A DNA stretch of 64,000 nt from Chloroflexota bacterium (lineage in GTDB: Bacteria; Chloroflexota; Anaerolineae; CG2-30-64-16): contig VGOD01000002.1 of NCBI GenBank assembly GCA_016876015.1, positions 1-64,000 on the forward strand, written 5' to 3'. The notes under the pieces are model-generated. The model was not told the DNA's origin. It made no database searches and worked only from the letters and a program-made list of their open reading frames with translations. Positions 4,718-59,794 of the stretch are shown one piece after another (position 1 is the stretch's first letter; each line of letters begins with the position of its first letter). Made by a program: the position numbers and the translations under genes.

Positions 4718-4956
4718 GCTTATACCTCCCAGTATATTATGAGCCGTCAGATTTCCGAAGTCTGTCCTTCCCACCAGGCGCCAGGCATCCTCTCAGGTGC
4801 CTGGCGCCTGGTGGGCTTCAAACTAGAATACTTGCACAGCTATTGTACCACACACTATGCACGGAGGTCTATAGGAGCAAAGCACCAACGGCGAGCGGCT
4901 TGCCAATTCTGGGTTGATCCTGTAATATTCGAGTAGAATTCCTCTTTGGAGCGATC

Positions 4957-9207: not shown

Positions 9208-9400
9208 CCCACGTGCCAGGCATCCTCTCAGGCGCCTGGCGCGTGGGCGGTTTTCGGGACAGTCGCCCATGCCGTGTGCGGCGCCAGTGCGAAGCCTCCC
9301 CGTGGGACGGCGCATGAAAACGTTCGTCGTAACGACTTCAGTCGTTCGGCGCGGGCCACGGCGACTAAAGTCGCTACTACGAACCCGCCCATTTGCAGGA
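9208..9400. repeat. Composite palindromic repeat: F1-type hairpin, boundary module, GACTTCAGTCG/CGACTAAAGTCG cargo, boundary module
   Basis: CCCACGTGCCAGGC…GCCTGGCGCGTGGG, CGGTTTTCGGGACAGTCGCCCATGCCG, GGCGCATGAAAACG, CATTTGCAGGACAGT. Confidence 0.7.
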
Positions 9401-10165: not shown

Positions 10166-10187
10166 GAACTATACTTCCGCATCTCGC

Positions 10188-10257
10188 TTGACGCTCGACG
10201 TTTGGCGCTCGACGCTTCACGCTCGACTTTTGACGTTTCACGTCTCACGTCTCACAT
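10188..10257. repeat. Heptanucleotide tandem array (10 units)
   Basis: ttgacgc tcgacgt ttggcgc tcgacgc ttcacgc tcgactt ttgacgt ttcacgt ctcacgt ctcacat. Confidence 0.85.
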
Positions 10258-12758: not shown

Positions 12759-12771
12759 GGAGGCTCCGTGT

Positions 12772-12813
12772 TGCGTGATGCGTACTGCGTATTGCGTATT
12801 GCGTATTGCGTAA
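12772..12813. repeat. Heptanucleotide tandem array (6 units, TGCGTAT-type)
   Basis: tgcgtga tgcgtac tgcgtat tgcgtat tgcgtat tgcgtaa. Confidence 0.9.
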
Positions 12814-12944
12814 GGTTGATGTGAGAGATGCCCTGGGGGCGACGGTAGTTTACCAGAAAGAGGGGGATGCGTCAAAGCCAACGACGATGCAGGCAAGTGG
12901 ACGGTTTGGCGGATCGGTTGTATACTTCCAAATGTAACCATGTA

Positions 12945-13005
12945 CCCACCAGGCGCCGGCACTTCCGAAGCGCCGGCGTCTGGTGGGTGATTTTCAGGAC
13001 AGCAA
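12945..13005. repeat. F1-type palindrome plus GATTTTCAGGACAG boundary module
   Basis: CCCACCAGGCGCCGGCACTTCCGAAGCGCCGGCGTCTGGTGGG then TGATTTTCAGGACAGC. Confidence 0.8.
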
Positions 13006-13008
13006 CCC

Positions 13009-13812
13009 TTGACTAACGATCTATCTGCCCTCACGATCGGCGCTGTCCTTGCCACCCGGCGGCTCGGCCGGCCGGCGTTGTTTTTTCCCACCGTCGCCTC
13101 GACCAACGACGTGATCCACCAGCACGCGGCGGCCGGCGCGGGGGAGGGGTTGCTGGTCGTCGCCGACGAGCAGACAGCCGGCCGGGGACGCCTGGGCCGC
13201 TCCTGGTGGGCGCCGCCAGGGACCAGCCTGCTGATTTCGCTGTTGCTGCGACCGCCCATCCCGGCCGGCCGCGCCGGCCAGATGACGATGTGCCTGGGCC
13301 TGGCCGCGGCCGAAGGGATCGAGCAGACGACCGGTCTGCGGCCGGTCCTCAAGTGGCCCAACGATCTGCTCCTGGATGGCCGCAAGTTGGGCGGAATCCT
13401 GACCGAGCTGCGTACCACGGCCGATCGGCTGGAGTACGCGGCGCTGGGGCTGGGGGTGAATGTGAATGTGGGGCGATTTGCCAAATCGCCCCACATGCCT
13501 GCTGAGTTGGTCGCGACCGTCATCAGCCTCTCGTCGGCGCTGGGCCGGCCGGTAGAGCGGCTGGCGCTGCTGGTCGCGATCCTGGCCCGCTGCGAAGTCT
13601 GGTATGATCGCCTGCTGGCCGGCGAGTCGCTGCACCGGGCGTGGGCCGCCAGGTTGGACACGCTGGGTCGTAGCGTTACGGTGACGCTGGCCAGCGGCGC
13701 ATTGCAGGGGGTTGCGACCGGGGTGACGACCGAAGGCGCGCTGCTGGTACGCGACGAAGAGGGCCGCGTTCACACGGTCTGGGCCGGCGACATAGCACCG
13801 TCCGGTAGTTGA
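13009..13812 (+). CDS. birA: Biotin--[acetyl-CoA carboxylase] ligase
   Basis: [72 protein letters not shown]. Listed start is TTG; the exact start is uncertain. Confidence 0.9.
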
Positions 13813-13999: not shown

Positions 14000-14716
14000 A
14001 TGCGAAACCATCAGCCCCAACTCCACACAGCCAACGACACGTCGCGTGTTTGTCCTGTGCGATCGGTGATCGCGCTGGTTGTTCTGGCTGCGCTGCTGAC
14101 CTGGGCGTTGCCTCGCGATGTCGTGGCGCGCTCCACGTTTCAATCGCCGCCCGCCGAGCAGGCCACGCCAACCCACACGGCCACTTCAGCGCCGCCGACC
14201 GCTACGGCTAGCGCCACAGCGGCGGGCGTGACCGCAACCGCTACGGCCACCCAGGCGGCCGCGACCGTCACACCGACCAGCGGTCGGGCCACAGGCACGG
14301 CCACGCCATCTCCCACCCGCCGCGGGACAGTGACCGGCACGGCTGTTGCGCAGCCATCGCCAACAGCAGGCGCTGCGGTCACAGTCACCGCGACTCTCGC
14401 CGCGCCTGCTCCCACGCCCGCGCCGAACATCGCCGGCACGCCGGCCGCGCCCGGCTTCTTGCCCGCGCCCACCTTGAGCGCGCCAGGCGGCGTGGTCCCG
14501 TTGTTGCCTGGGCCCCAACAGCCGCTGGCCGCGTCCCCGGCCGAGCGCCTGCGCCCCACCAGTCCCGCGACGAGCAACTCGCCGCCGGCCGTCGCGACCC
14601 TCATTGACAATGCGATCGTGGCGCTGAGTTATGTCTGGCTCTGTTGTGGGGTAATCGTGCTGGTCGTGGCCGGCCTGGTTCTGGTCTGGCTGGCGCGGCG
14701 GGGCCGGCGTGGTTAG
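14000..14716 (+). CDS. Hypothetical protein with N- and C-terminal TM segments and a long Ala/Thr/Pro-rich linker
   Basis: VIALVVLAALLTWALP; TATATQAAATVTPTSG…; C-terminal VWLCCGVIVLVVAGLVLVWLARRGRRG. Confidence 0.6.
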   Translation: MRNHQPQLHTANDTSRVCPVRSVIALVVLAALLTWALPRDVVARSTFQSPPAEQATPTHTATSAPPTATASATAAGVTATATATQAAATVTPTSGRATGTATPSPTRRGTVTGTAVAQPSPTAGAAVTVTATLAAPAPTPAPNIAGTPAAPGFLPAPTLSAPGGVVPLLPGPQQPLAASPAERLRPTSPATSNSPPAVATLIDNAIVALSYVWLCCGVIVLVVAGLVLVWLARRGRRG

Positions 14717-14724
14717 GGTCGGCG

Positions 14725-16308
14725 ATGACGAACATACGGCCACACCTTGCGCGGTCGCAGGCAAAGACGATCCTGTTGGCTCTTCTGCCCGTGGGCCTGA
14801 CGCTGTTGGCGTTTGGCCTCCGGGTCTATCATCTGACCTATCAGAGCCTCTGGCGCGACGAGGTTGACGCGTTGCTCTTCGCCACGCGGCCGCTCTCTGA
14901 GTTGTTGGCGACTTTCCGCAGGCCCGGCGAGAACGGGCCGCTGTTCTTCTTGATGCTGCGGCCCTGGATCGCGGCCGCCGGACAGAGTGAGTTCGCGCTG
15001 CGTTTTCCCTCGGCCCTGGCTGGCGCGCTGGCCGTGCCGTTGGCCTACGTTCTGACGCGTCGTCTGGCCGGTCGGGGGCCGGCGCTGGCGACTGCCGCGC
15101 TGATGGCGCTCGCACCCTACCTGGTCTGGTACGGCCAGGAAGCCAAGATGTACGCTCTGTTGACCGCGCTCGTCCCGCTGGCGCTGTGGCTGACCATCGA
15201 GGCGGCGGAGCGCGGCGGATGGCGGCGTTGGATCACGCTCTATGTCGTGACCAGCGTGTGTTTCTACACGCACGTGCTGGCCGCGCTGGTCGTTCCGCTG
15301 CAGGCGATCTGGTTTCTGGTTCTCCGGGGGGGATGGGGGGGGAGTGAAACCCACCAGGCGCCAGGCGCTTCCGAAGCGCCTGGCGCCTGGTGGGCGATTC
15401 TCAGGGCAATCCGACCCTGGCTGGCGCCGGTCATCTACCTGTTCGCGCTCGTGCTGCCCTATCTGCCGCTTGTCTGGTGGCAGGCGGTGCTGTGGCTGTC
15501 ACCGACCTTCGAGACGGGCCACCCGTTCGTGCCGCTGCCCGAGATGGCAACCGTGCTGGTGGTCGCGTTCAGCCGCGGCATCCTGCCGGTGCAAGAGCCG
15601 CTGACGCTTCTGCCGTTCGTGCTGGCCCTGCTCGCGGGGGCGCTGTTGTGGCCGGGGGGAGACAGGAGACAGGAGTCAGGGGGCAGGCGTCAGGAGTCAG
15701 GAGACGGCCGAGATCGTTGGCGGCCGCTCGTCCTTCTGTTGACCTGGCTGCTGTTCCCGGTGCTCGCTATCTACGGCGTTTCCCTGGGCATGCCGATCTT
15801 CGCCGATCGTTATCTGATCTGGATCATGCCGGCTTTTCTCGCATTGATCGGCATGGGGATCGTAGTCCTGGCTCGCGGCTGGCGGCCGCTGGCGCTAGCT
15901 GCTCTCGCCGCGATCATGGCGCTCAACCTGGCGGATGTGGCCGCGCACGCCAACCAGCCGATCAAGGCGGACTTTCGGGGCGCCGCGGCCTTTGTGCTGC
16001 CACAGTTGCAAAAGGATGATCTGGTGATCTTCCAAATCCCGTATAGCCGCTTCACGTTTCGCTACTACAGCGGTCGCAGCGTGAACAGGGTGGACGGGCC
16101 GTATACCAACGATGGCATGAGCGAGACTGAACTCGCGAACCAGATGGTGACTGCCGTGGGACAGGCCTCGGTCGCCTGGTTGGTAGCGTCTGAGGCTGAG
16201 CTGTGGGACGCACGCGGCCTGACCGAGAAGTGGCTGGCCGCGCACGGCGCCATCACCGACCGCGCGGAGTTCATGCGCGTGACCGTGACCCGTTATGATC
16301 TGAGGTGA
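14725..16308 (+). CDS. GT39/ArnT-like membrane glycosyltransferase carrying two repeat inserts
   Basis: 'YHLTYQSLWRDEVDALLFATRPLSELL', 'ENGPLFFLMLRPW', 'YGQEAKMYALLTAL'; multi-TM. Confidence 0.8.
   Translation: MTNIRPHLARSQAKTILLALLPVGLTLLAFGLRVYHLTYQSLWRDEVDALLFATRPLSELLATFRRPGENGPLFFLMLRPWIAAAGQSEFALRFPSALAGALAVPLAYVLTRRLAGRGPALATAALMALAPYLVWYGQEAKMYALLTALVPLALWLTIEAAERGGWRRWITLYVVTSVCFYTHVLAALVVPLQAIWFLVLRGGWGGSETHQAPGASEAPGAWWAILRAIRPWLAPVIYLFALVLPYLPLVWWQAVLWLSPTFETGHPFVPLPEMATVLVVAFSRGILPVQEPLTLLPFVLALLAGALLWPGGDRRQESGGRRQESGDGRDRWRPLVLLLTWLLFPVLAIYGVSLGMPIFADRYLIWIMPAFLALIGMGIVVLARGWRPLALAALAAIMALNLADVAAHANQPIKADFRGAAAFVLPQLQKDDLVIFQIPYSRFTFRYYSGRSVNRVDGPYTNDGMSETELANQMVTAVGQASVAWLVASEAELWDARGLTEKWLAAHGAITDRAEFMRVTVTRYDLR
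15350..15394. repeat. F1 palindrome, perfect 21-bp arms, in frame inside a CDS
   Basis: CCCACCAGGCGCCAGGCGCTT-CCG-AAGCGCCTGGCGCCTGGTGGG. Confidence 0.95.
15661..15702. repeat. Heptanucleotide array (6 units) inside a CDS
   Basis: gacagga gacagga gtcaggg ggcaggc gtcagga gtcagga; encodes GDRRQESGGRRQESGDGR. Confidence 0.9.
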
Positions 16309-28045: not shown

Positions 28046-31000
28046 TCAGTCGCCCAAGACCGCGGCTTCGGCCTGCGCGTTCCACATGCGGTGATATACG
28101 CCCCCGGCCGCCAGCAAGGCCGCGTGCCGGCCGCGCTCGACGATCCGCCCTCCGGCCAGCACCAGGATTTCATCGGCCGCCTCGAGCCCTGCCAGGCGGT
28201 GGGTGATGATCAGCATGGCGCGACCGGCGGCCTGAGCCTGAACCCCTTGCAGCACAGCGCGTGCTGTCAAGGGGTCGAGGTTGGCGGTCGGCTCGTCCAG
28301 GATCAGGATCGGCGCTTCTTTCAGCAGGGCGCGCGCGATGTTGAGGCGCTGGCGTTCGCCGCCGCTCAGACGTAGCCCTTGCTCGCCGACCCATGTGTCA
28401 TAGCCCTGCGGCAACGCGGCGATGAAATCGTGAATCTGGGCTGCGGCCGCGGCCTGCTCGATCTCGGCCTGCGTCGCGTCTGGCCGCGCCAGGCGCAGAT
28501 TTTCGCGAATGGTCGCGTTGAACAGATGGGCGCTCTGCGCCGCCGCCGCAACCAGGCGCCGGGCGTCCTCCGCTGTGTACTCACGCAGATCGCGACCCGC
28601 CAGTTCGATGCGGCCTTGCCCGCTTTCCCAAAAGCGCAGCAGCAGGTTGACGATCGTGGACTTGCCCGCGCCGCTTGGCCCGACGATCGCTGTGCGCTGA
28701 CCGGCCGCGATGGCGAAGGTGACGTCATCGAGCGCGGGCCGCGCGTCTGTCTCGTAGCGGAAACGCACCCCCTCGAAGCGAATCACCGGCCCGGCTTCTG
28801 CTGCCGTGGTATGCGGCTCGCTGGCGAGCTCTTTTTCTGGCTCCTCTGTCCTGAAAATCAACGCCCGCTCTGGTCTCGAGGCTGTGCGAAGCCGCCTTTC
28901 AGGATCAGCCGGTTTCTGCCGCCGACCACCAAACCGGCTAAAGCCTCGAATCCAGCCCGCCTGTTTTTCATGCGCCGTCCCACAGGGAGGCTGCGCACCC
29001 TGGACTGCATGGCGCAGCCAGGGCAGGCTGGCGCCGCGGCCGGTATGAGCAACTGTCCCGAAAATGGCCCGGCTGGCCTCACGCAAAGGCGCAAAGGTCG
29101 CCAAGGACCGTTGAGTTCTTCGGGCCGCCTCTGCGTCTTGGCGTCTTTGCGTGAGCTTTTCATCCGCACTGCCGCCGGCCGCGGCATGGGCATCTGCCCT
29201 ATCGCCCCTGCCCTCTTCCGTGGCCGTCAGATCGGACAGCCGACCGGCGGCCGTCAGGCAGCTCGCCAGGTGCTGTGCGGCCGCGGGCAGGGGAAAAACG
29301 GCTTCGAAGCTCGCAGCGGTCGCCAACGCCAGAACCGCCAGATCAACACCGCTCAGTCGTCCGCCGCCGATCAGCGGAATCGCCACGGCCAGCACGGCGA
29401 CGGTCGCCAGACCGACCAGAAGCACGTCGAGCGCGCTGTTCAGGCTGCCGAGCATTGCCAGGCGTTCCTGGGCCCCGATCAGCGTTTGGCTCAACCTCGC
29501 AACCCGGCCGGCGTGGCCGCGCGCCTGGCCGAAGGCGATCAGATCCGCCATCCCCTGGATGCTGTCCACCAGCGCTGCGTTCAGATCTGCGCGCAACAGC
29601 ACTGTCTCCCGGCCCGGTCTGCGGCTGAGCGCACGCGCGAGGAGCGGTACGCCGAGGCCGGCCAGCAGCAGGAACGACAGCAGCGTGAGCGCCAGGCGTG
29701 GATCGTAGCGCGCCATGAAGCCGGCCATCAGCAGCAAGACCAGCAGGGCGGTCAGCGGCGGCGCCAGCCCGCGCACGTATAGGTTCTCCAGGGTCGCCAC
29801 ATCCGCGACGATGCGGCTCAAGAGGTCGCCGCTGCGATGCGCTAGCAGACGCGCCGGCGCGAGCGGCTCGATCGCGGCGTAGAACCGCGTGCGCAATCGC
29901 GCCAGAATGCGAAAGGTCACATCGTGTGAGACCAGTCGCTCGGCATAGCGCAAGAGGCCGCGGCTGATGCCGAAGAAACGCACGCCCACGATAGCTATTT
30001 GCAGCTCGGCAATGGAAGGATGCAACGCTGCGCTCGCGATCAGCCACGCCGAGATCGCCATCAGCCCGATCCCGCTGCCCACCGTGAGAAATCCGAGGAG
30101 CGCCGCCAACGCCATGAGGGGGATTATTGATTTTGGATTTGCGATTTTGGATTTTGGATGGGCGATCTGCAGTTGGCGATTTGCAATCGGCAATCGGCAA
30201 TCCAACATCGGCAATCCAACATCGGCAATCCAACATCGGCAATCGGCAATCCGCAATCGGTAATACACCCCCTGCCGCGCCATCAATGCCGCATGGTCGC
30301 CCGTTTCGACCACGCGACCGGCATCCACCACCAGGATCTGGTCGGCGCGGCGCACGGTGTTGAGGCGATGCGCGATGACGATGACCGCACGTCCTACGAT
30401 CAGGCGTTCGATGGCCGAGCGGATCGCGATCTCCTGTTCGGGGTCCAGATTGGAGGTCGACTCATCCAGGATCAAGATGGGCGCATCCTTCAGAAAGGCG
30501 CGCGCTAGCGCGACGCGCTGCGCCTGGCCGCCGCTGAGCCGCGCGCCCCGCTCGCCGATGACCGTGTCGTAGCCCAGGGGCAGGGCCGCAATGAAATCGT
30601 GCGCGTGCGCGAGCTGCGCCGCGGCCATCACATCCGCCTGGCTGGCCCCTGGTCGGGCCAGGCGGATGTTCTCGCCAATGCTGGCGTTGAACAGATAGGG
30701 CATCTGCGGCGCCCAGGCGATCTGCTTCTGCCACTGGGCTGCTGGGATGCCCTCCAACGGTAGGCCATTGATGGCGATGGCGCCGGAGGTTGGCGCGATG
30801 AAGCGGAGCAGCAGTTGCGCGATGGTAGTCTTGCCGGCGCCGCTTGGACCCACCAATGCCACAGTCTGGCCGCTGGCGATGCTGAAGGAGGCGTCGCTGA
30901 GGGCCGGCCGCTCAGCGTTGGGGTAGGCGAAGCTGACGTTCTGAAAGTCAATGCGCCAGGGCGCAGGGGGCAACACGACAGGCTGGTGGGAGAGCGGGGC

Positions 31001-39986: not shown

Positions 39987-41806
39987 GGCGCTACATCGGC
40001 CGAGGCTACCTGCTGCTGCGCTGGTTGCCCCTGGGCGTGCTGGCGCTGGCCGTCTTGTTGCTGTTGACTACGCCCGCTCTGCGGATGTGGTTCAAGTTCG
40101 CCATTGACTACAACGAGGGTTGGAACGCCTATCATGCAGCCCGCGCAGCAGCCGGCCAACCGATCTACGATGCGAGCAACGTGTGGACCCCGGCAGACTA
40201 TCCACCCCTCTCCTTCTACATCGTGGGACTCGCAGGTCGTATGGTCGGCGACCCGGTGATCGCGGGTCGGGTGATCTCTTTCCTGGCGCTGCTGGCGATC
40301 GGCCTGCTCGCGGGCAGGATCGTGCAATGTCTCGGCGGCGATCTTCACGCCCGCGTGTTGGCTGTGTTGCTCTGCATCGGCCCATTTGCCGCGTATGGAA
40401 CCCACTACGTGGGCATGAACGATCCCCAGATGCTGGGCAGCCTGTTCATGATGGTCGGGCTGTGGCTCTACGTTTCGCGCCTGCCGGCCGGCGCCAGCCT
40501 GCCCTGGCTGCGCCATGCAGTCCAGGGTGCGCAGCCTCCCTGTGGGACGGCGGATGAAGAACAGGTGGGCTGGATTCGAGGCTTTGGCCGGTTTGGTGGT
40601 CGGCGGCAGAAACCGGCTGATCCTGAAAGGAGGCTTCGCACAGCCTCGAGACCAAATCGGTGGGCGGCGATTTTCAGGTCAGGTCTTGCACGGACGGTGC
40701 TGGGGACAGAGAACCGCTGGCTCTTCCTGGTGGCGCTCTGCTGCGCGCTGGGGCTGTTGGTCAAATACAACCTTTTGCCTCTGCCCGCAGCGATCGGGCT
40801 GGACCTCTTGTTGCGCTCGCGCAAGGCGCTGCTGAAGTGGCTCGGCTTCGTCGCGTTGATCCTGGGCGGCTTCTTCGCGATCGCCTACCTGGTTTGGGGC
40901 GTCGAGTTCTTTCGCCAGATGCTGCTCAGCTCCACCACGTTCAGCCTGGGCAAGGCCATCGAGTGGAGCAGCGCGATGGCGCGGCGTATCGCGCTGCCGC
41001 TGCTGCTGACCGCGCCGTGGGCCGTGGTCGCCCTGCTCAACGCCCGCTGGCGGGTGATCGCGCTCTATCTGGGGCTGGCGGCCCTGTTTGGCGTCTATAC
41101 CTCGAGCAGCACCGGCACCGATGTCAACGTCTTCTTCGATCTGTTCATGGCGCTGGGTATGGCTGGCGGGCTGCTGGCGACGTGGACTGCCGGCCGCGGC
41201 GCCATGGCGGATGAAAAACGGGTGGGCTGGATTCGAGGCTTTAGCCGGTTTGGTGGTCAGCGGCAGAAACCGGCTGATCCTGAAAGGAGGCTTCGCACAG
41301 CCTCGAGACCGGAGCGGGCGGCGATTTTCAAGCCAGTCGTCTGCCTGCTGCCGCTTGTGTTGGGTTTTGGCCTGCTGCTGGCTGCACCGCAGAAAGCGGC
41401 GCGTCCCTGGACTCTTGACGACTTCAAGGCTCGAGAGGCTGCGTTTCTGGCCGATGCGGCCTTCCTGGCCGGGCAGCCGGGGCCGGCGATCTGTGAGACG
41501 ATTCTCCTGTGCTACTACGCGGGGAAGCCGTTTCTCTACGACCCTTACAATGCGGGCGAGATGCAGGTGAAAGGGATCAGGCCGGAGGGCGATCTGTTGC
41601 GTCAGTTGGAGGCGCAGGAATACGCGGTGGTCCAGCTCAACCGGCCCCTGCCCGACCGCTATCGGGAGGCGGCGGCCTACACGCCTGCGCCGCAGCGCGG
41701 GTCCAGCATCGGCGACCGGTTCACAGAGAACACCAAACGTGCGCTCGGAGCGCACTATCGGCTGGCCAGGCAGACGGGCCAGCGTTCTTTCTACTTACCT
41801 CGGTAA
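39983..41806 (+). CDS. GT39-like membrane glycosyltransferase with two in-frame repeat inserts
   Basis: Overlaps previous CDS by ATGA; 'WFKFAIDYNEGWNAYHAARAAAGQPIYDASNVWTPADYPPLSFYIVG'; inserts '[55 protein letters not shown]' and '[36 protein letters not shown]'. Confidence 0.8.
   Translation: MRRYIGRGYLLLRWLPLGVLALAVLLLLTTPALRMWFKFAIDYNEGWNAYHAARAAAGQPIYDASNVWTPADYPPLSFYIVGLAGRMVGDPVIAGRVISFLALLAIGLLAGRIVQCLGGDLHARVLAVLLCIGPFAAYGTHYVGMNDPQMLGSLFMMVGLWLYVSRLPAGASLPWLRHAVQGAQPPCGTADEEQVGWIRGFGRFGGRRQKPADPERRLRTASRPNRWAAIFRSGLARTVLGTENRWLFLVALCCALGLLVKYNLLPLPAAIGLDLLLRSRKALLKWLGFVALILGGFFAIAYLVWGVEFFRQMLLSSTTFSLGKAIEWSSAMARRIALPLLLTAPWAVVALLNARWRVIALYLGLAALFGVYTSSSTGTDVNVFFDLFMALGMAGGLLATWTAGRGAMADEKRVGWIRGFSRFGGQRQKPADPERRLRTASRPERAAIFKPVVCLLPLVLGFGLLLAAPQKAARPWTLDDFKAREAAFLADAAFLAGQPGPAICETILLCYYAGKPFLYDPYNAGEMQVKGIRPEGDLLRQLEAQEYAVVQLNRPLPDRYREAAAYTPAPQRGSSIGDRFTENTKRALGAHYRLARQTGQRSFYLPR
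40484..40682 (+). repeat. Modular repeat (long linker hairpin plus F2 cargo) in CDS
   Basis: GCCGGCGCCAGCCTGCCCTGGCTGCGCCATGCAGTCCAGGGTGCGCAGCCTCCCTGTGGGACGGCGGATGAAGAACAGGTGGGCTGGATTCGAGGC…CTCGAGACC…GCGATTTTCAGGTCAGG. Confidence 0.92.
41190..41342 (+). repeat. Modular repeat (short linker plus F2 cargo) in CDS
   Basis: GCCGGCCGCGGCGCCATGGCGGATGAAAAACGGGTGGGCTGGATTCGAGGCTTTAGCCGGTTTGG…AGCCTCGAGACC…GCGATTTTCAAGCCAGT. Confidence 0.92.
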
Positions 41807-53871: not shown

Positions 53872-54125
53872 AATTCCCACACGCTCCTCGCCGGCAGGTT
53901 TGCTCCAGGCGGCCGGCTCCGATTTCGCAAGGGTATTATACCATCGGGATGAGGTATCGGCAAACGTCTCCCGAAATGCGGGATGTGCGGCGGGCGAGCG
54001 AGAGTTCACAGCGTGTTCCTTTCGATTCGATGCAGCGACTCTGCCCATCGTAGCCAGTACAGATGAACAGGATATGAACGCCCCGCCGGGTCACTTTGAC
54101 AGTCTTTTCACACCACAATTCTGCG

Positions 54126-54162
54126 CACACCTGTCAGGTTCTTGAAAGACCTGACAGGTGTG
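54126..54162. repeat. Perfect inverted repeat, 14-bp arms
   Basis: CACACCTGTCAGGT-TCTTGAAAG-ACCTGACAGGTGTG. Confidence 0.9.
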
Positions 54163-54283
54163 CAGGCCGAAAAGGTGCATTGCAAGCTGAATGTAAGGTT
54201 TAACTGTTGACATATGGTGTAAAATGAGTTAGCTTCTGGTTGAGCTGAGAGTGGGCTGCAATTATCAAATAAGGAGGATGTTC

Positions 54284-57200
54284 ATGGAAGTCATGAAGTA
54301 TCTCAAGGTAATTGGGTTGACCGTTCTTCTGATGGCCGCGTTGGCGCTGGCTGCGCCGGCGGGGGCGAAGGAACTCGATGCGCGCAGCCAGGCTGCGCCT
54401 TCGGCGCCTGCTGCGGGCAGCATCGGGGATCTGGTCTGGCGTGATGACAATCTGAACGGGTTGCCTGATGGCGGCGAGGCGGGCATCAACAACGTGCTGA
54501 TGCAGTTGTTCAGCAAGCCTTGTGTGAATGTCCTGCCCGGCGATACGCCGACGGCAACGGCAACCACCGCGGGCGGCGGCATATACGCGTTCTCTGGCTT
54601 GGGCGCGGGGCACTACTGTGTGAGGCCGGCCCCCAGCAACTTCGCTCCGGGCGGCGCGCTCTATCGCCTGGCCTACACTCCCGAACCATCCATCGCGCCT
54701 GAGGCGCGCGATGTGATCCTGGCGACTGGTCAGGTCTTCAACGACGCCGACTTCGGCTACACCGATAGCGGCCTCGCCCTCACCAAGACGGCTTCGACCA
54801 CCGGATCGTGCCCCGGCGTGGACCCGCTCACGATCTACGATCCGGGCACGACCGTCACCTACTGCTACGATGTACACAACACGGGGCATACCTATCTGAA
54901 AAATGTGCAGTTGTCCGATGACAAGCTGGGATTTCTGGGCTACTACCCCGGTCCAGGTCCGCTGGCGCCGGGCGCTCACTGGCTGTTCTCGACTTCGACC
55001 CAGATCTACACCACCACGGTGAACATCGGGTCTGTAACGGGCGATCCGAGTGACTTCAAGAGCCGGCCGCTTCCCGGCGATTCCCCCAGCGCGCAAGACC
55101 CGGCGACCGTCTACTACGTCCCGCGGGCGGTCATCGGAGACCGGGTGTGGGAGGATGTCAACGGCAATGGCGTGCAGGATGCCGGCGAGCCGGGCATCGC
55201 TAACGTCACGGTGAGGCTCTATGACAGCTCCGACGTGCTGCGAGGTACGACAACAACCAACGGCAGCGGCCTGTACAGCTTCAATCCGATCCCCGGCGAC
55301 TACTATGTGCAGTTCGTGCTGCCAGGCGGCTATGTGTTCACTTTCCGGGACCAGGGTGCGAACGATACCGCCGACAGCGATCCCGATAGGACCACCGGCA
55401 AGACGGCTGTGACCACCCTGGTTTCGGCCGAGTATGACCCGACCTGGGACGCCGGTATGTTCCGCTATGCGACGTTGGGCGACAAGGTATGGTCGGACAC
55501 CAATGCGAACGGCATCCAGGACGGGGGCGAGGCGGGCTTGAGCGGGGTGACGGTCAAGCTGTACAACAGCGCCAACGTCTTGCAGGGCACGACGACGACC
55601 AACGCCAGCGGGGTCTACAGCTTCACGAACCTGGTGCCTGGCGACTACTATGTGGAGTTCGTCAAGCCGGCGGGCTACGTGTTCAGCCCGCAGGATCAGG
55701 GCGCCAACGATGCGGTGGACAGCGATGCGAACACGAGCACGGGCAAGACGGCAGTGACGACGCTGATCTCGGGCGAGAGCGATCTGACCTGGGATGCGGG
55801 GCTGTATCAGTATGCGACGTTGGGCGACAAGGTATGGTCGGACACCAATGCGAACGGCATCCAGGACGGGGGCGAGGCGGGCTTGAGCGGGGTGACGGTC
55901 AAGCTGTACAACAGCGCCAACGTCTTGCAGGGCACGACGACGACCAACGCCAGCGGGGTCTACAGCTTCACGAACCTGGTGCCTGGCGACTACTATGTCC
56001 AGTTCACGCTGCTGACGGGCTATTACTTCAGCCCGCAGGATCAGGGTGCGAACGATGCGGTGGACAGCGATGCAGACACGAGCACGGGCAAGACGGCAGT
56101 GACGACGCTGATCTCGGGCGAGAGCGATCTGACCTGGGACGCGGGGATGTACTACCATGCGAGCCTGGGCGATTTCGTCTGGAATGACACGGACGCCGAC
56201 AAGGTTCAGGATCCTGGCGAGCTCGGTATCCCCGGTGTTGTGATCAGCCTGACCCTGCCGAGCGGCGCTGTGCTCACGACGACTACCGATGTTAACGGCC
56301 TGTACCTCTTCGACAACCTGCCGGCCGGGAACTTCGTGGTAGATGTGGTCTCGGTGCCCAGCGGCTACTTCCTGACCACTGCCAACGATCCGCTGCCGGT
56401 GACTCTGGCGCCGAGCCAGAACTACCGAGACGCCGACTTCGGCTATGCCGGCAAGGGACATATCGTCGGCGTGGTGTTCTATGATTGGAACAAGGATGGC
56501 GTGCAAGACCCCAACGAGACCGGCATTGACAATGTCGAGGTGTGCCTGTACCAGGATGTAGACGGCGACGGCGTGTTCGACAATCCAGGGGACGTGCAGT
56601 TGGCGTGCCAGAACACGACCGGCGGTGGAGGGTATGCGTTCAATAACTACATGCCTGGCCACTACCTGGTGGTGCAGACGCAGCCATCCGGCTTGCAGAG
56701 CTCACCGGCTTCGCCCAATGTGCGGCCGGTGCACCTGGTCGTTGTGGGACCCGGCGGCCAGTCGGAGCAGCGAGACTTCGGCGAATTCTATGTGGTGCGC
56801 GTGGGCGACCAGGTCTTTGTGGACGCCAACGGCAACGGCATTCAGGACCCTGGAGAACCGGGCATGATCGGTGTGCCGCTGCAACTGACGGGCATTGACG
56901 CCGCTGGAACGGCTATCAGCCAGTCGGTGAACAGCCTGAACGGCGCGTATATCTTCGATATCCTGCTGCCGGGCACTTACACCGTGACCGCGCCGACGAA
57001 CTTCAACAACTATCTGCGCATCTCGGCCAGCCCGCTGATCACGACCTTCGTGATCGGGTCGGCGGCCCGTGAGGATCTGACACTGGACTTCCGCTACGCA
57101 TACCCAACCGGCCTGAGCCTGCAGCGGTTCGATGCTGCGGTGCAGGGCGGCAAGGTGGTCTTGAGTTGGGAGATCATCGGCGCGGCGCCGCAGGGCTTCA

Positions 57201-57451: not shown

Positions 57452-57458
57452 GGTGGGC

Positions 57459-57535
57459 GTGAAACGTGAAGCGTGAAACGTGAAGCGTGAAACGTGAAGC
57501 GTGAGACGTCCAACGTCCAACTTTCAACCTTCATA
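57459..57535. repeat. Heptanucleotide array (11 units, GTGAAAC/GTGAAGC alternating)
   Basis: gtgaaac gtgaagc gtgaaac gtgaagc gtgaaac gtgaagc gtgagac gtccaac gtccaac tttcaac cttcata. Confidence 0.93.
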
Positions 57536-57581: not shown

Positions 57582-59794
57582 CAGTCGTGTCTCAACAGCC
57601 GCGAGGAGTTGCCCAGGATGCCCAGGTCCGGCAGCGACTGCGCCGCGGCCGCCAGGATCGGCGGCAGGATGCCCAGGGCAGCCAGCGTCAGGCCGACGAT
57701 GTTGTAGGCCGCGGTGAAAGCCAGGTTGATCCTGACAATCCTCAACGTGCGCCGCGCGATGCGAAATAGCTCCGGCGCCAGACGCCAATCGTCGCGCAAG
57801 AGCGCCACGTGCGCCGCCTCGATGGCCACATCAGAGCCAGCCGCAGCCATGGCCAGCCCCACATCGGCCTGAGCCAGGGCCGGCGCATCATTCACACCAT
57901 CCCCCACCATCACCACGACGCAGCCCTGAGTCTGATACTCCTGGACGATGCGGATTTTGTCCTCTGGCAGCAGATTGGCTCGATAGGGAATGCCCAGTTG
58001 CCCGGCCAGGAGTTGCGCGGTCGTCTCGTTATCTCCGGTCAGCAATTCGATGCGCCGAATTCCCAACCCGCGCAGCTCGGCCAGGGCCGCGGGCGCTTCT
58101 GGCCGCAGCGCATCGGCTGCGGCGATGACGCCCACCAACTCGTTGTTCACGACCACATAGAGCCGCATCTCCCCATTGGCCGCTGCGGTTGGCGGTTCTG
58201 CGCCCACCTTCCAGGGGCCAACTTCCGTCTCGATCAACCGGCGATTGCCTACGGCCACGGCCGCGCCGCCGACTCTGGCCCGCACACCCAAACCTGGCAG
58301 CGCCTCGAACGCCTCCGGTTCCGTCGGTTGCACACCTTGCTCGTGCGCCGCGACCCGGATAGCCTCGGCCAGCGGATGCTCGGAGTAGCGTTCGGCCGAA
58401 GCTGCCCAGTACAGGATGTCGGAGGACCCCCCAAAAGTGCCAGGCGCTTCCGAAGTGCCTGGCACCTGGGGAGCGATTTTCATGGCAGACGTCCCGGCGC
58501 CGGTCGCGGCTAACGGTCTCACATCCAGCACCTCGGTCACGCGTGGCTTTCCCAGCGTGACCGTGCCTGTCTTGTCAATGAGCAAGATGTCCGCACGCGC
58601 CAGCGTCTCCAAGTGGCGGCCGCCCTTGATCAGCAAGCCGCGGCGCGCACCCGCGCCAATGGAGGCGAGCATGGCGATGGGAGTGGCGAGAGCGAAGGAA
58701 CACGAACAAGCTACCACCAGCACGGCTGCGGTTGCCAGTGGATCTCGACGCAACAAGAAGGTCAGGCCGGCGATGCCAGCCACGATCGGCAAGTACCAGG
58801 TCGAGAACCGATCAGCGATCAACTGGACGCTCGCCCGATTCGCCTCCGCCTCTTCCACCAGCCGGACGACGCGGCCGAAGGTCGAGTCGGCGCCGATGTG
58901 CGTCGCGGCCACCCGCAGGCTGCCCAAGCGAGCGAATGACGCGGCATAGACGTGCGCGCCCGGCCCCACTTCGACCGGCATGGCTTCGCCGGTAATGGCC
59001 GCCTGATCCACAGTGGCTTGCCCGCTCACCACCTCACCGTCCACTGGAATGCGCTCACCGGGCCGCACGATTACCACCTCGCCGACCCGCGCCTGGCCCA
59101 CAGGGAGCGTCACCTCGCGACCAGCGCGCTCGATGCGCGCGGTCTGGGGCGCCAGCGCGGTCAGATCCCGCACCGCACGGCGGGCGCGCTCGGCGGTGAA
59201 GCGTTCCACGTAGTCGCCCACCCGCATGAAGAAGACCACTACGGCGGCCGTCGCCCATTCGCCCACGGCCAGCGCCGCGACCACGCCCAGTGTCATCAGG
59301 GTGTGCGAAATGATCTGCCCGCGCAGCGTCGCCCGCGCCACTTTGCGAAAGACCGGATACCCGCCGGCGATGACGATCGCCAGACCGAGCGGCCACGGCG
59401 CCCGCGCGGTGATCCGCTCGAACAGCCCCAGCCATTCGCCAAAGACCACGACGAAGAGAACCGCCGCGAAGAGAAGGCCCAGCAGCAAGCCCACCTGCCG
59501 GCTGAGGCCGGCCAGCGGCGGCCGGGCTGGCTGTTGATTGGGAGAGCCTCCGATCTGGTCGGCGGCTGTCGCAGCAGCGCCAGACGCCGCATAGCCAGCA
59601 TCGGTCACGGCTTTGACGATGGCATCCAGGCTCACCTGGGCCGGATCGAGCTGCACAGTCGCCCTCTCGGCTGCCAGCAATACTTCGACCGAGACGATGC
59701 CCGGCAATGCGGCGATGGCGCGACGAACGTGCTGTGTACACTCGGCGCAATCCATACCGGCGATGGGGACGACCAGCGTTTTCAGATCATTCAC
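57581..59794 (-). CDS. Heavy-metal-translocating P1B-type ATPase with N-terminal HMA domain
   Basis: GMDCAECTQHVRRAIAALPGI, 'VVACSCSFALATPIAMLAS', IDKTGTVTLGKPRV, ERYSEHPLAEAI, MVGDGVNDAPALAQADVGLAM. Confidence 0.92.
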   Translation of the reverse strand: MNDLKTLVVPIAGMDCAECTQHVRRAIAALPGIVSVEVLLAAERATVQLDPAQVSLDAIVKAVTDAGYAASGAAATAADQIGGSPNQQPARPPLAGLSRQVGLLLGLLFAAVLFVVVFGEWLGLFERITARAPWPLGLAIVIAGGYPVFRKVARATLRGQIISHTLMTLGVVAALAVGEWATAAVVVFFMRVGDYVERFTAERARRAVRDLTALAPQTARIERAGREVTLPVGQARVGEVVIVRPGERIPVDGEVVSGQATVDQAAITGEAMPVEVGPGAHVYAASFARLGSLRVAATHIGADSTFGRVVRLVEEAEANRASVQLIADRFSTWYLPIVAGIAGLTFLLRRDPLATAAVLVVACSCSFALATPIAMLASIGAGARRGLLIKGGRHLETLARADILLIDKTGTVTLGKPRVTEVLDVRPLAATGAGTSAMKIAPQVPGTSEAPGTFGGSSDILYWAASAERYSEHPLAEAIRVAAHEQGVQPTEPEAFEALPGLGVRARVGGAAVAVGNRRLIETEVGPWKVGAEPPTAAANGEMRLYVVVNNELVGVIAAADALRPEAPAALAELRGLGIRRIELLTGDNETTAQLLAGQLGIPYRANLLPEDKIRIVQEYQTQGCVVVMVGDGVNDAPALAQADVGLAMAAAGSDVAIEAAHVALLRDDWRLAPELFRIARRTLRIVRINLAFTAAYNIVGLTLAALGILPPILAAAAQSLPDLGILGNSSRLLRHD
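58427..58490. repeat. F1-type palindrome plus boundary module, in frame in the ATPase CDS
   Basis: AAAAGTGCCAGGCGCTT-CCG-AAGTGCCTGGCACCTGGGGAGCGATTTTCATGGCAGA. Confidence 0.88.

What the first reader, a model, noticed from the sequence alone, without database searches (positions are those of the whole stretch)
15350..15394. Perfect 21-bp-arm palindrome in frame inside a GT39-like gene
CCCACCAGGCGCCAGGCGCTT-CCG-AAGCGCCTGGCGCCTGGTGGG adds 'HQAPGASEAPGAWW' to the glycosyltransferase and is followed by the boundary-like GCGATTCTCAGGGCA. Near-identical copies occur intergenically (4770-4815 with 18-bp perfect arms, 9208-9247, 12945-12987). A strong hairpin inside an mRNA should affect translation or RNA stability.
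Basis: partly seen in the sequence, partly recalled or inferred. Interest (0 to 1): 0.68.

Follow-up and report, generated by a model that had tools for sequence, protein, structure and literature searches.

The report
In-frame mobile palindrome in Anaerolineae genes
A short mirror-image DNA repeat has spread through the genomes of a group of uncultured Chloroflexota bacteria and sits inside working genes without breaking them, almost always read in the one frame that gives a harmless flexible loop; this is something known mainly from Rickettsia and its relatives.

Summary
Confirmed. A 45-bp perfect palindrome (22-nt arms) lies in frame in a GT39/PMT_2 gene. Aligned orthologs lack the peptide; a structure model puts it in a loop between helices. 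It belongs to a dispersed palindrome family with at least 76 places in this 6.5-Mb Anaerolineae genome and copies in related genera.

Strongest result: of 50 gene-internal copies in seven genomes, 46 are read in one frame, (H/Q)(V/A)PG(T/A)SE(V/A)PG(T/A), 4 in a second and none in the third, although all frames are open. Hosts include ferrochelatase, SurE, RecQ and a B12 dehydratase. The arms covary, also in coding copies, where coupled amino-acid changes follow base pairing. In one relative the unit is exactly 33 bp (11 codons), with sharp ends and no target-site duplication. Non-coding copies mostly lie just after stop codons.

Best reading: a non-autonomous mobile palindrome that works like Rickettsia palindromic elements but differs in size, and in taxon. 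I found no report of this in Chloroflexota. How it moves is unknown; Y1/RAYT transposases do not track it. The claimed effect of the hairpin on mRNA is untested.

The parts
14725..16308 (+). host gene: GT39/PMT_2-like membrane glycosyltransferase, 527 aa (start codon uncertain; the open ORF begins at 14644)
   Evidence: matches in 54 of 60 related genomes
15350..15394 (+). 45-bp palindrome, 22-nt perfect arms, codons 209-224, peptide HQAPGASEAPGAWW
   Evidence: absent from orthologs; loop of pLDDT about 57-62
15345..15349 (+). left border motif TGAAA of the element
   Evidence: consensus TTGAAA left of the palindrome
15395..15409 (+). right tail CGATTCTCAGGGCAA (consensus CGATTTTCAGGACAG), read in frame as ..AILRA..
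   Evidence: the same tail follows other palindromic modules
4770..4815 (+). intergenic palindrome of the same kind, 18-nt perfect arms, other loop
9208..9262 (+). intergenic relative CCCACGTGCCAGGC..GCCTGGCGCGTGGGC followed by tail GGTTTTCGGGACAG and connector module
12944..13002 (+). intergenic member, arms 91% complementary, with tail TGATTTTCAGGACAG
58429..58490 (+). member with tail CGATTTTCATGGCAG; gene call here is weak, treated as non-coding
15658..15705 (+). second in-frame repeat insert in the same gene: 7-bp units GGAGACA/GGAGTCA, peptide RRQESGGRRQESGDG
   Evidence: absent from orthologs; low-confidence loop 311-330

Best explanation
The palindrome is one copy of a non-autonomous, REP-sized mobile palindromic element of one Anaerolineae lineage. 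The unit is about 33-45 bp, carried in this genome with a TGAAA left border and a CGATTTTCAGGACAG tail. Shown: it is dispersed, it is inserted relative to orthologs in this gene, its arms covary, and inside genes it is read almost only in the frame that yields a hydrophilic PG(T/A)SE(V/A)PG(T/A) loop. Inferred: new copies insert regardless of codon phase, and purifying selection keeps those that (a) preserve frame (unit length a multiple of 3, no stops), (b) fall in variable surface loops or termini, and (c) use the benign frame. Other tolerated landing places are just after stop codons, where the element's own TGA sometimes becomes the stop. Palindromy is kept by structure-dependent copying or by template-switch correction of imperfect palindromes, since base pairing, not the protein, explains the coupled changes. 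The copying enzyme is not identified.
For: Insertion: orthologs lack the peptide; the model has mean pLDDT 88 but 57-62 at residues 201-220 and 58-65 at 311-330, both inter-helix loops. Frames: own genome 19:1:0, G004 15:2:0, other family members 11:1:0, others 1:0:0; 46:4:0, chi-square p about 1e-17 if independent. Hosts by Pfam: ferrochelatase, SurE, RecQ, FGE-sulfatase, B12 dehydratase large subunit, CYTH-CHAD, amidohydrolase, pseudouridine synthase, nucleoside phosphorylase, ABC transporter. Extra residues relative to solved or related proteins: dehydratase, RecQ, SurE C-terminus. Covariation: 12 of 22 pairs with changes on both sides, 87 double-change cells against 34 in shuffles, collapse on sliding; in 34 coding copies the coupled codon changes fit pairing (Fisher p 4e-4 and 1e-4). 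Shared sites: fourfold differences 3/27 in the insert against 41/105 in near flanks, p 0.006. G004 unit: the same 33-bp limits in 19 copies, no target-site duplication of 3 bp or more.
Against: No excision or transposition event was seen and no dedicated enzyme found. Clean DNA-level empty sites were not obtained: in ferrochelatase and the dehydratase the loop itself varies in relatives, so some events may be insertion with deletion, or old and decayed. Gene calls are my own codon-based calls, not a standard annotation. Copies are not fully independent (three shared sites, some tandem copies). The frame bias could come from phase-specific insertion and not from selection.
Confidence: 0.8

Rival explanations
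1. The palindromes are functional RNA hairpins (terminators or mRNA stabilisers) and the coding copies are incidental.
For: Non-coding copies cluster 10-40 bp after stop codons and are enriched between convergent genes (14 of 51); strong predicted hairpin.
Against: Terminator function would not explain 50 gene-internal copies with one dominant reading frame; the palindrome core is not followed directly by a long T run in the consensus; G004 has 17 of 21 sampled copies inside genes; no Rfam family matches.
Confidence: 0.2
2. The peptide PGTSEVPGT is the selected unit (a useful linker or modification site), and the palindrome is a by-product of its codons.
For: Near-uniform frame; the same peptide in unrelated proteins.
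Against: Non-coding copies carry the same DNA; the third bases of the first and last codons are complementary in all 34 coding copies listed, and T/V to A/A changes are coupled as base pairs; fourfold sites are conserved at shared sites.
Confidence: 0.07
3. They are REP elements moved by a RAYT/Y1 (HUH) transposase.
For: REP-like size, hairpin, position after genes, asymmetric conserved tail; no target-site duplication; one Y1-like gene lies next to a gene that holds a palindrome (L050).
Against: Only two Y1_Tnp genes in this genome, one with no palindrome within the 2 kb searched; genome G005, 97% complete, has many palindromes but no PF01797 match, while many Y1-bearing genomes have no palindromes; no GTAG or CGTC tag was seen in the consensus.
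Confidence: 0.2
4. DNA uptake signals or binding sites of a chromosome-organising protein.
For: Repeated palindromic core GTGCC(A/T)GGCAC; dispersed.
Against: Half-sites GTGCC(A/T)GGCAC occur 57 times in palindromes and 7 times outside in the sampled 1.07 Mb (the sample was chosen for palindromes); outer stems vary with compensation, which a fixed binding site would not need.
Confidence: 0.05

Closest known systems
Rickettsia palindromic elements (RPEs) and Wolbachia palindromic elements
   Same: Dispersed palindromic repeats, both intergenic and fused in frame inside conserved protein genes; encoded peptide lies in solvent-exposed or unstructured parts; some insertion sites shared by related species (PMC10969869, PMC2229807, PMC3767692, PMC2996958).
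   Different: RPEs are about 100-150 bp and in Rickettsiales; here 33-45 bp, G+C-rich, Chloroflexota. RPEs are described as losing repeat identity with time (PMC6649704); here arms stay complementary, with compensatory changes.
REP / BIME elements (GTAG- and CGTC-tagged)
   Same: Size, hairpin, copy number, placement just downstream of genes; some REPs are reported inside genes (PMC3733652).
   Different: No GTAG/CGTC tag seen in the consensus; high share inside genes (17 of 21 sampled in G004); strong single-frame use; no link to Y1/RAYT genes found.
Coding palindromes of nematomorph mitochondria
   Same: Perfect palindromes kept inside coding sequence (PMC6649704).
   Different: Those are long (up to 284 bp), mitochondrial, and not described as one short dispersed unit like this.
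Bacterial MITEs (NEMIS, ERIC, YPAL)
   Same: Small non-autonomous repeats, some with open frames fused to genes (PMC2229807).
   Different: Those are about 100-200 bp, most with terminal inverted repeats and target-site duplications; here the whole unit is one palindrome and no duplication is seen.

Membership tests
Rickettsia/Wolbachia palindromic element (protein-coding palindromic repeat) | dispersed repeat with dyad symmetry | tested here: met
Rickettsia/Wolbachia palindromic element (protein-coding palindromic repeat) | in-frame insertion in unrelated conserved genes without breaking them | tested here: met
Rickettsia/Wolbachia palindromic element (protein-coding palindromic repeat) | length about 100-150 bp | tested here: not met
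   33-45 bp core
Rickettsia/Wolbachia palindromic element (protein-coding palindromic repeat) | sequence homology to a named RPE family | not tested
   no RPE library was searched; size and base composition make it unlikely
Rickettsia/Wolbachia palindromic element (protein-coding palindromic repeat) | peptide at a solvent-exposed, unstructured part of the fold | tested here: inconclusive
   met for the window protein: low-pLDDT inter-helix loop; for the others only inferred from variable loops in alignments
REP element moved by RAYT | GTAG or CGTC tag at one end of the hairpin | tested here: not met
   no tag visible in the 68-nt alignment of 48 copies
REP element moved by RAYT | cognate Y1 (RAYT) transposase gene in the genome, flanked by the repeats | tested here: not met
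   two PF01797 genes, no flanking pair; palindrome-rich G005 has none
classical MITE | target-site duplication | tested here: not met
   none of 3 bp or more in 19 G004 copies; one 4-bp repeat in 27 copies of other family members

The most novel reading that the evidence does not exclude
A mobile DNA has evolved to be 'protein-safe': a unit of exactly 11 codons, open in every frame, whose favoured frame gives an inert PGTSEVPGT loop in both orientations. A structure-dependent process keeps it palindromic inside coding sequence across genera, so that amino-acid pairs in unrelated proteins co-evolve by DNA base pairing.
Probability: 0.35. Interest if true: 0.8.

Novelty: new variant of a known kind. 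Interest (0 to 1): 0.62.

Why it matters
Protein-coding palindromic repeats were described as a feature of Rickettsiales, with single reports elsewhere. A family in large-genome Chloroflexota with about 50 sampled gene-internal copies, one dominant frame and compensated arms suggests that the phenomenon is not tied to reduced intracellular genomes. It makes old questions testable by counting: does insertion choose the codon phase or does selection, how are palindromes maintained inside genes, and do such elements supply new protein loops and C-termini. It bears on annotation too: the inserts are lineage-specific loops that could be mistaken for functional ones.

Tried and rejected
Y1/RAYT transposase as the mover: no co-distribution. 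Rfam families: none in the window. Phage, plasmid and viral collections: no match to the element. Phylum-wide exact search for GTGCCAGGCAC..GTGCCTGGCAC in 400 Chloroflexota: only this genome in that evenly drawn sample, so the family looks lineage-restricted; the looser model rings in 53 of 150 Anaerolineae, the weak ones possibly other palindromes. DNA uptake signal: half-sites rarely occur alone. Target-site duplications: none convincing. Paper searches on Chloroflexi/Anaerolineae with palindromic repeats in genes found nothing relevant. The 2002 RPE paper was not held, so RPE features come from reviews and later papers.

Full report
WHAT IS THERE. The palindrome at 15350-15394 is real: 22-nt perfect arms with one base between, 45 bp in all, the longest perfect inverted repeat in the window. 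It starts at the second base of codon 209 of a 527-aa gene (14725-16308) that scores as PMT_2/GT39. On one strand it folds with -55.3 kcal/mol including flanks, z -8.1.

IT IS AN INSERTION. The genome is an uncultured Anaerolineae MAG of 6.53 Mb in 533 contigs (98.4% complete, 5.5% contamination). Matches to the gene are found in 54 of 60 related genomes. An alignment of 25 ortholog sequences (some are the same contig from two collections) shows that none has the palindrome peptide; the site lies between two helices where relatives have a few variable residues. The same alignment shows a second in-frame insert made of 7-bp repeats (15658-15705). An AlphaFold2 model from 24 sequences has mean pLDDT 88.4; the only internal 10-residue blocks below 70 are 201-220 and 311-330, that is, the two inserts, both in loops.

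THE FAMILY. Exact copies of the 23-nt core occur 41 times in the genome, none in the reversed control. The consensus is TTGAAA-CCCACCAAGTGCCAGGCACTTC-C-GAAGTGCCTGGCACTTGGTGGG-CGATTTTCAGGACAG. The tail CGATTTTCAGGACAG also closes other palindromic modules, and a connector GCCCATGCCGGCCGCGGCGCCACGGCGGATGAAAAC joins modules into composites. Related genomes of the same family carry the element too, strongly in G004, G005, G006, G007 and G009, plus some other Anaerolineae. In G004 the unit is sharply 33 bp, ACGTGCCAGGCACTTCSGAAGTGCCTGGCACGT, with unrelated flanks and no target-site duplication.

THE ARMS COVARY. With the full hairpin imposed on 44 distinct copies, 12 of 22 pairs show changes on both sides and 87 cells carry double changes, against 34 in shuffles; sliding the partner by 1-3 columns destroys the signal. 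The caveat is that related copies inflate this. In 34 coding copies two amino-acid pairs change together (V..T to A..A outside; T..V to A..A inside) as base pairs require, Fisher p 4e-4 and 1e-4, and the third base of the first codon is complementary to that of the last in all 34 listed.

READING FRAME. I called genes with a codon-usage model (coding fraction 0.79-0.89). Of 142 distinct palindromes sampled, 50 lie inside called genes, in seven genomes. Frames: own genome 19:1:0 (the single exception sits in a weak, probably false, gene), G004 15:2:0, other family members 11:1:0, one other family 1:0:0, in total 46:4:0, against an even expectation p about 1e-17 if copies were independent. None of the three frames of the core has a stop, in either strand, so the bias is not forced by stops. 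The favoured frame reads (H/Q)(V/A)PG(T/A)SE(V/A)PG(T/A). Pfam supports many hosts as real genes: SurE, ferrochelatase, methyltransferase, FGE-sulfatase, CYTH-CHAD, RecQ, amidohydrolase, B12-dependent dehydratase; pseudouridine synthase, pyrimidine phosphorylase, FAD-binding protein, ABC transporter, radical SAM/epimerase. The two frame-1 copies in G004 also lie in Pfam-supported genes.

INSERTIONS IN CONSERVED ENZYMES. In the dehydratase the own protein has 13 residues more than the solved homologue, just after GDYLQPAAIF and before LRVLSAIND; relatives L310-L312 lack them and G007 has a shorter, unlike segment there, possibly a decayed copy. RecQ, SurE (C-terminal extension) and a G004 nucleoside phosphorylase show extra residues against relatives. 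In ferrochelatase the net gain is smaller than the element, so the event there was not a clean insertion, or the loop changed later.

SHARED SITES. Three insertions are found at the same place in two genera (own/G007, G004/G005, G004/G006). In these the insert differs at 3 of 27 fourfold sites against 41 of 105 in the nearest flanks (p 0.006). Either the palindrome is held by selection or correction, or it was inserted twice at a hot spot; the data do not decide.

NON-CODING COPIES. Of 51 in this genome, 14 are between convergent, 31 between tandem and 6 between divergent genes (convergent gaps are 54 of 468 of all gaps), and the distance to the nearest stop codon is often 10-36 bp. Seven copies lie exactly 13 bp from a TGA; in most of them the element's own TGA (TTGAAACCC) is the stop codon of the upstream gene.

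HOW IT MOVES. Unknown. Only two Y1 transposase genes are in the genome, and one palindrome-rich, 97%-complete relative has none, so a PF01797 transposase does not seem to be required at present. The lack of target-site duplication argues against a DDE transposase. I favour copying through a single-stranded hairpin by an unidentified enzyme or by replication template switching; this is inference.

COMPARISON. It works like the Rickettsia and Wolbachia palindromic elements: dispersed, palindromic, in frame in conserved genes, in exposed loops (PMC10969869, PMC2229807, PMC3767692). It is not a member of those families by size, and sequence homology was not tested. It resembles REPs in size and place but lacks the GTAG/CGTC tag and a matching RAYT (PMC3733652). 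Searches of the held literature found no report in Chloroflexota.

LIMITS. MAG data, own gene calls, copies partly related by descent, relatives sampled by palindrome hits, no expression data.

Noticed in passing
window 15658-15705: A 7-bp tandem repeat (GGAGACA/GGAGTCA) forms a second in-frame insert in the same gene, absent from orthologs. Similar heptamer arrays recur in the window (10185-10249, 12767-12812, 30183-30264, 57457-57509).
   Followed up: partly
window 41183-41218 (+), 29156-29191 (-); L031:10052-10087, L021:8549-8584 and others: Connector module GCCCATGCCGGCCGCGGCGCCACGGCGGATGAAAAC: 24 copies in the sampled genome, 9 in genes, all 9 on the same strand and in the same frame, reading (I/V)FRTxAHAGRGATADEN, often just before a membrane helix. 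Composite modules are translated through (L031, L021).
   Followed up: partly
L016, L019, L020, L040, L041, L164 (distance 13 from palindrome): The element's own TGA (TTGAAACCC) serves as the stop codon of the upstream gene.
   Followed up: partly
L015:9440-10465: Ferrochelatase carries another extra segment (DSTQQTTLRSAQDASGMGNGRG) that relatives lack, perhaps from a further repeat family.
   Followed up: no
L217:8073-8123 and L220:5722-5830 (genome G007): Short tandem arrays of the 33-bp palindrome spaced 50-54 bp apart.
   Followed up: no
window 55247-56151: 345-bp tandem repeat, 2.6 copies, 86% alike.
   Followed up: no
window 13466-13496 and 54125-54163: Two further perfect 15-bp-arm inverted repeats, unrelated in sequence; the first lies inside ORF 13009-13812 (biotin ligase-like by eye).
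   Followed up: no
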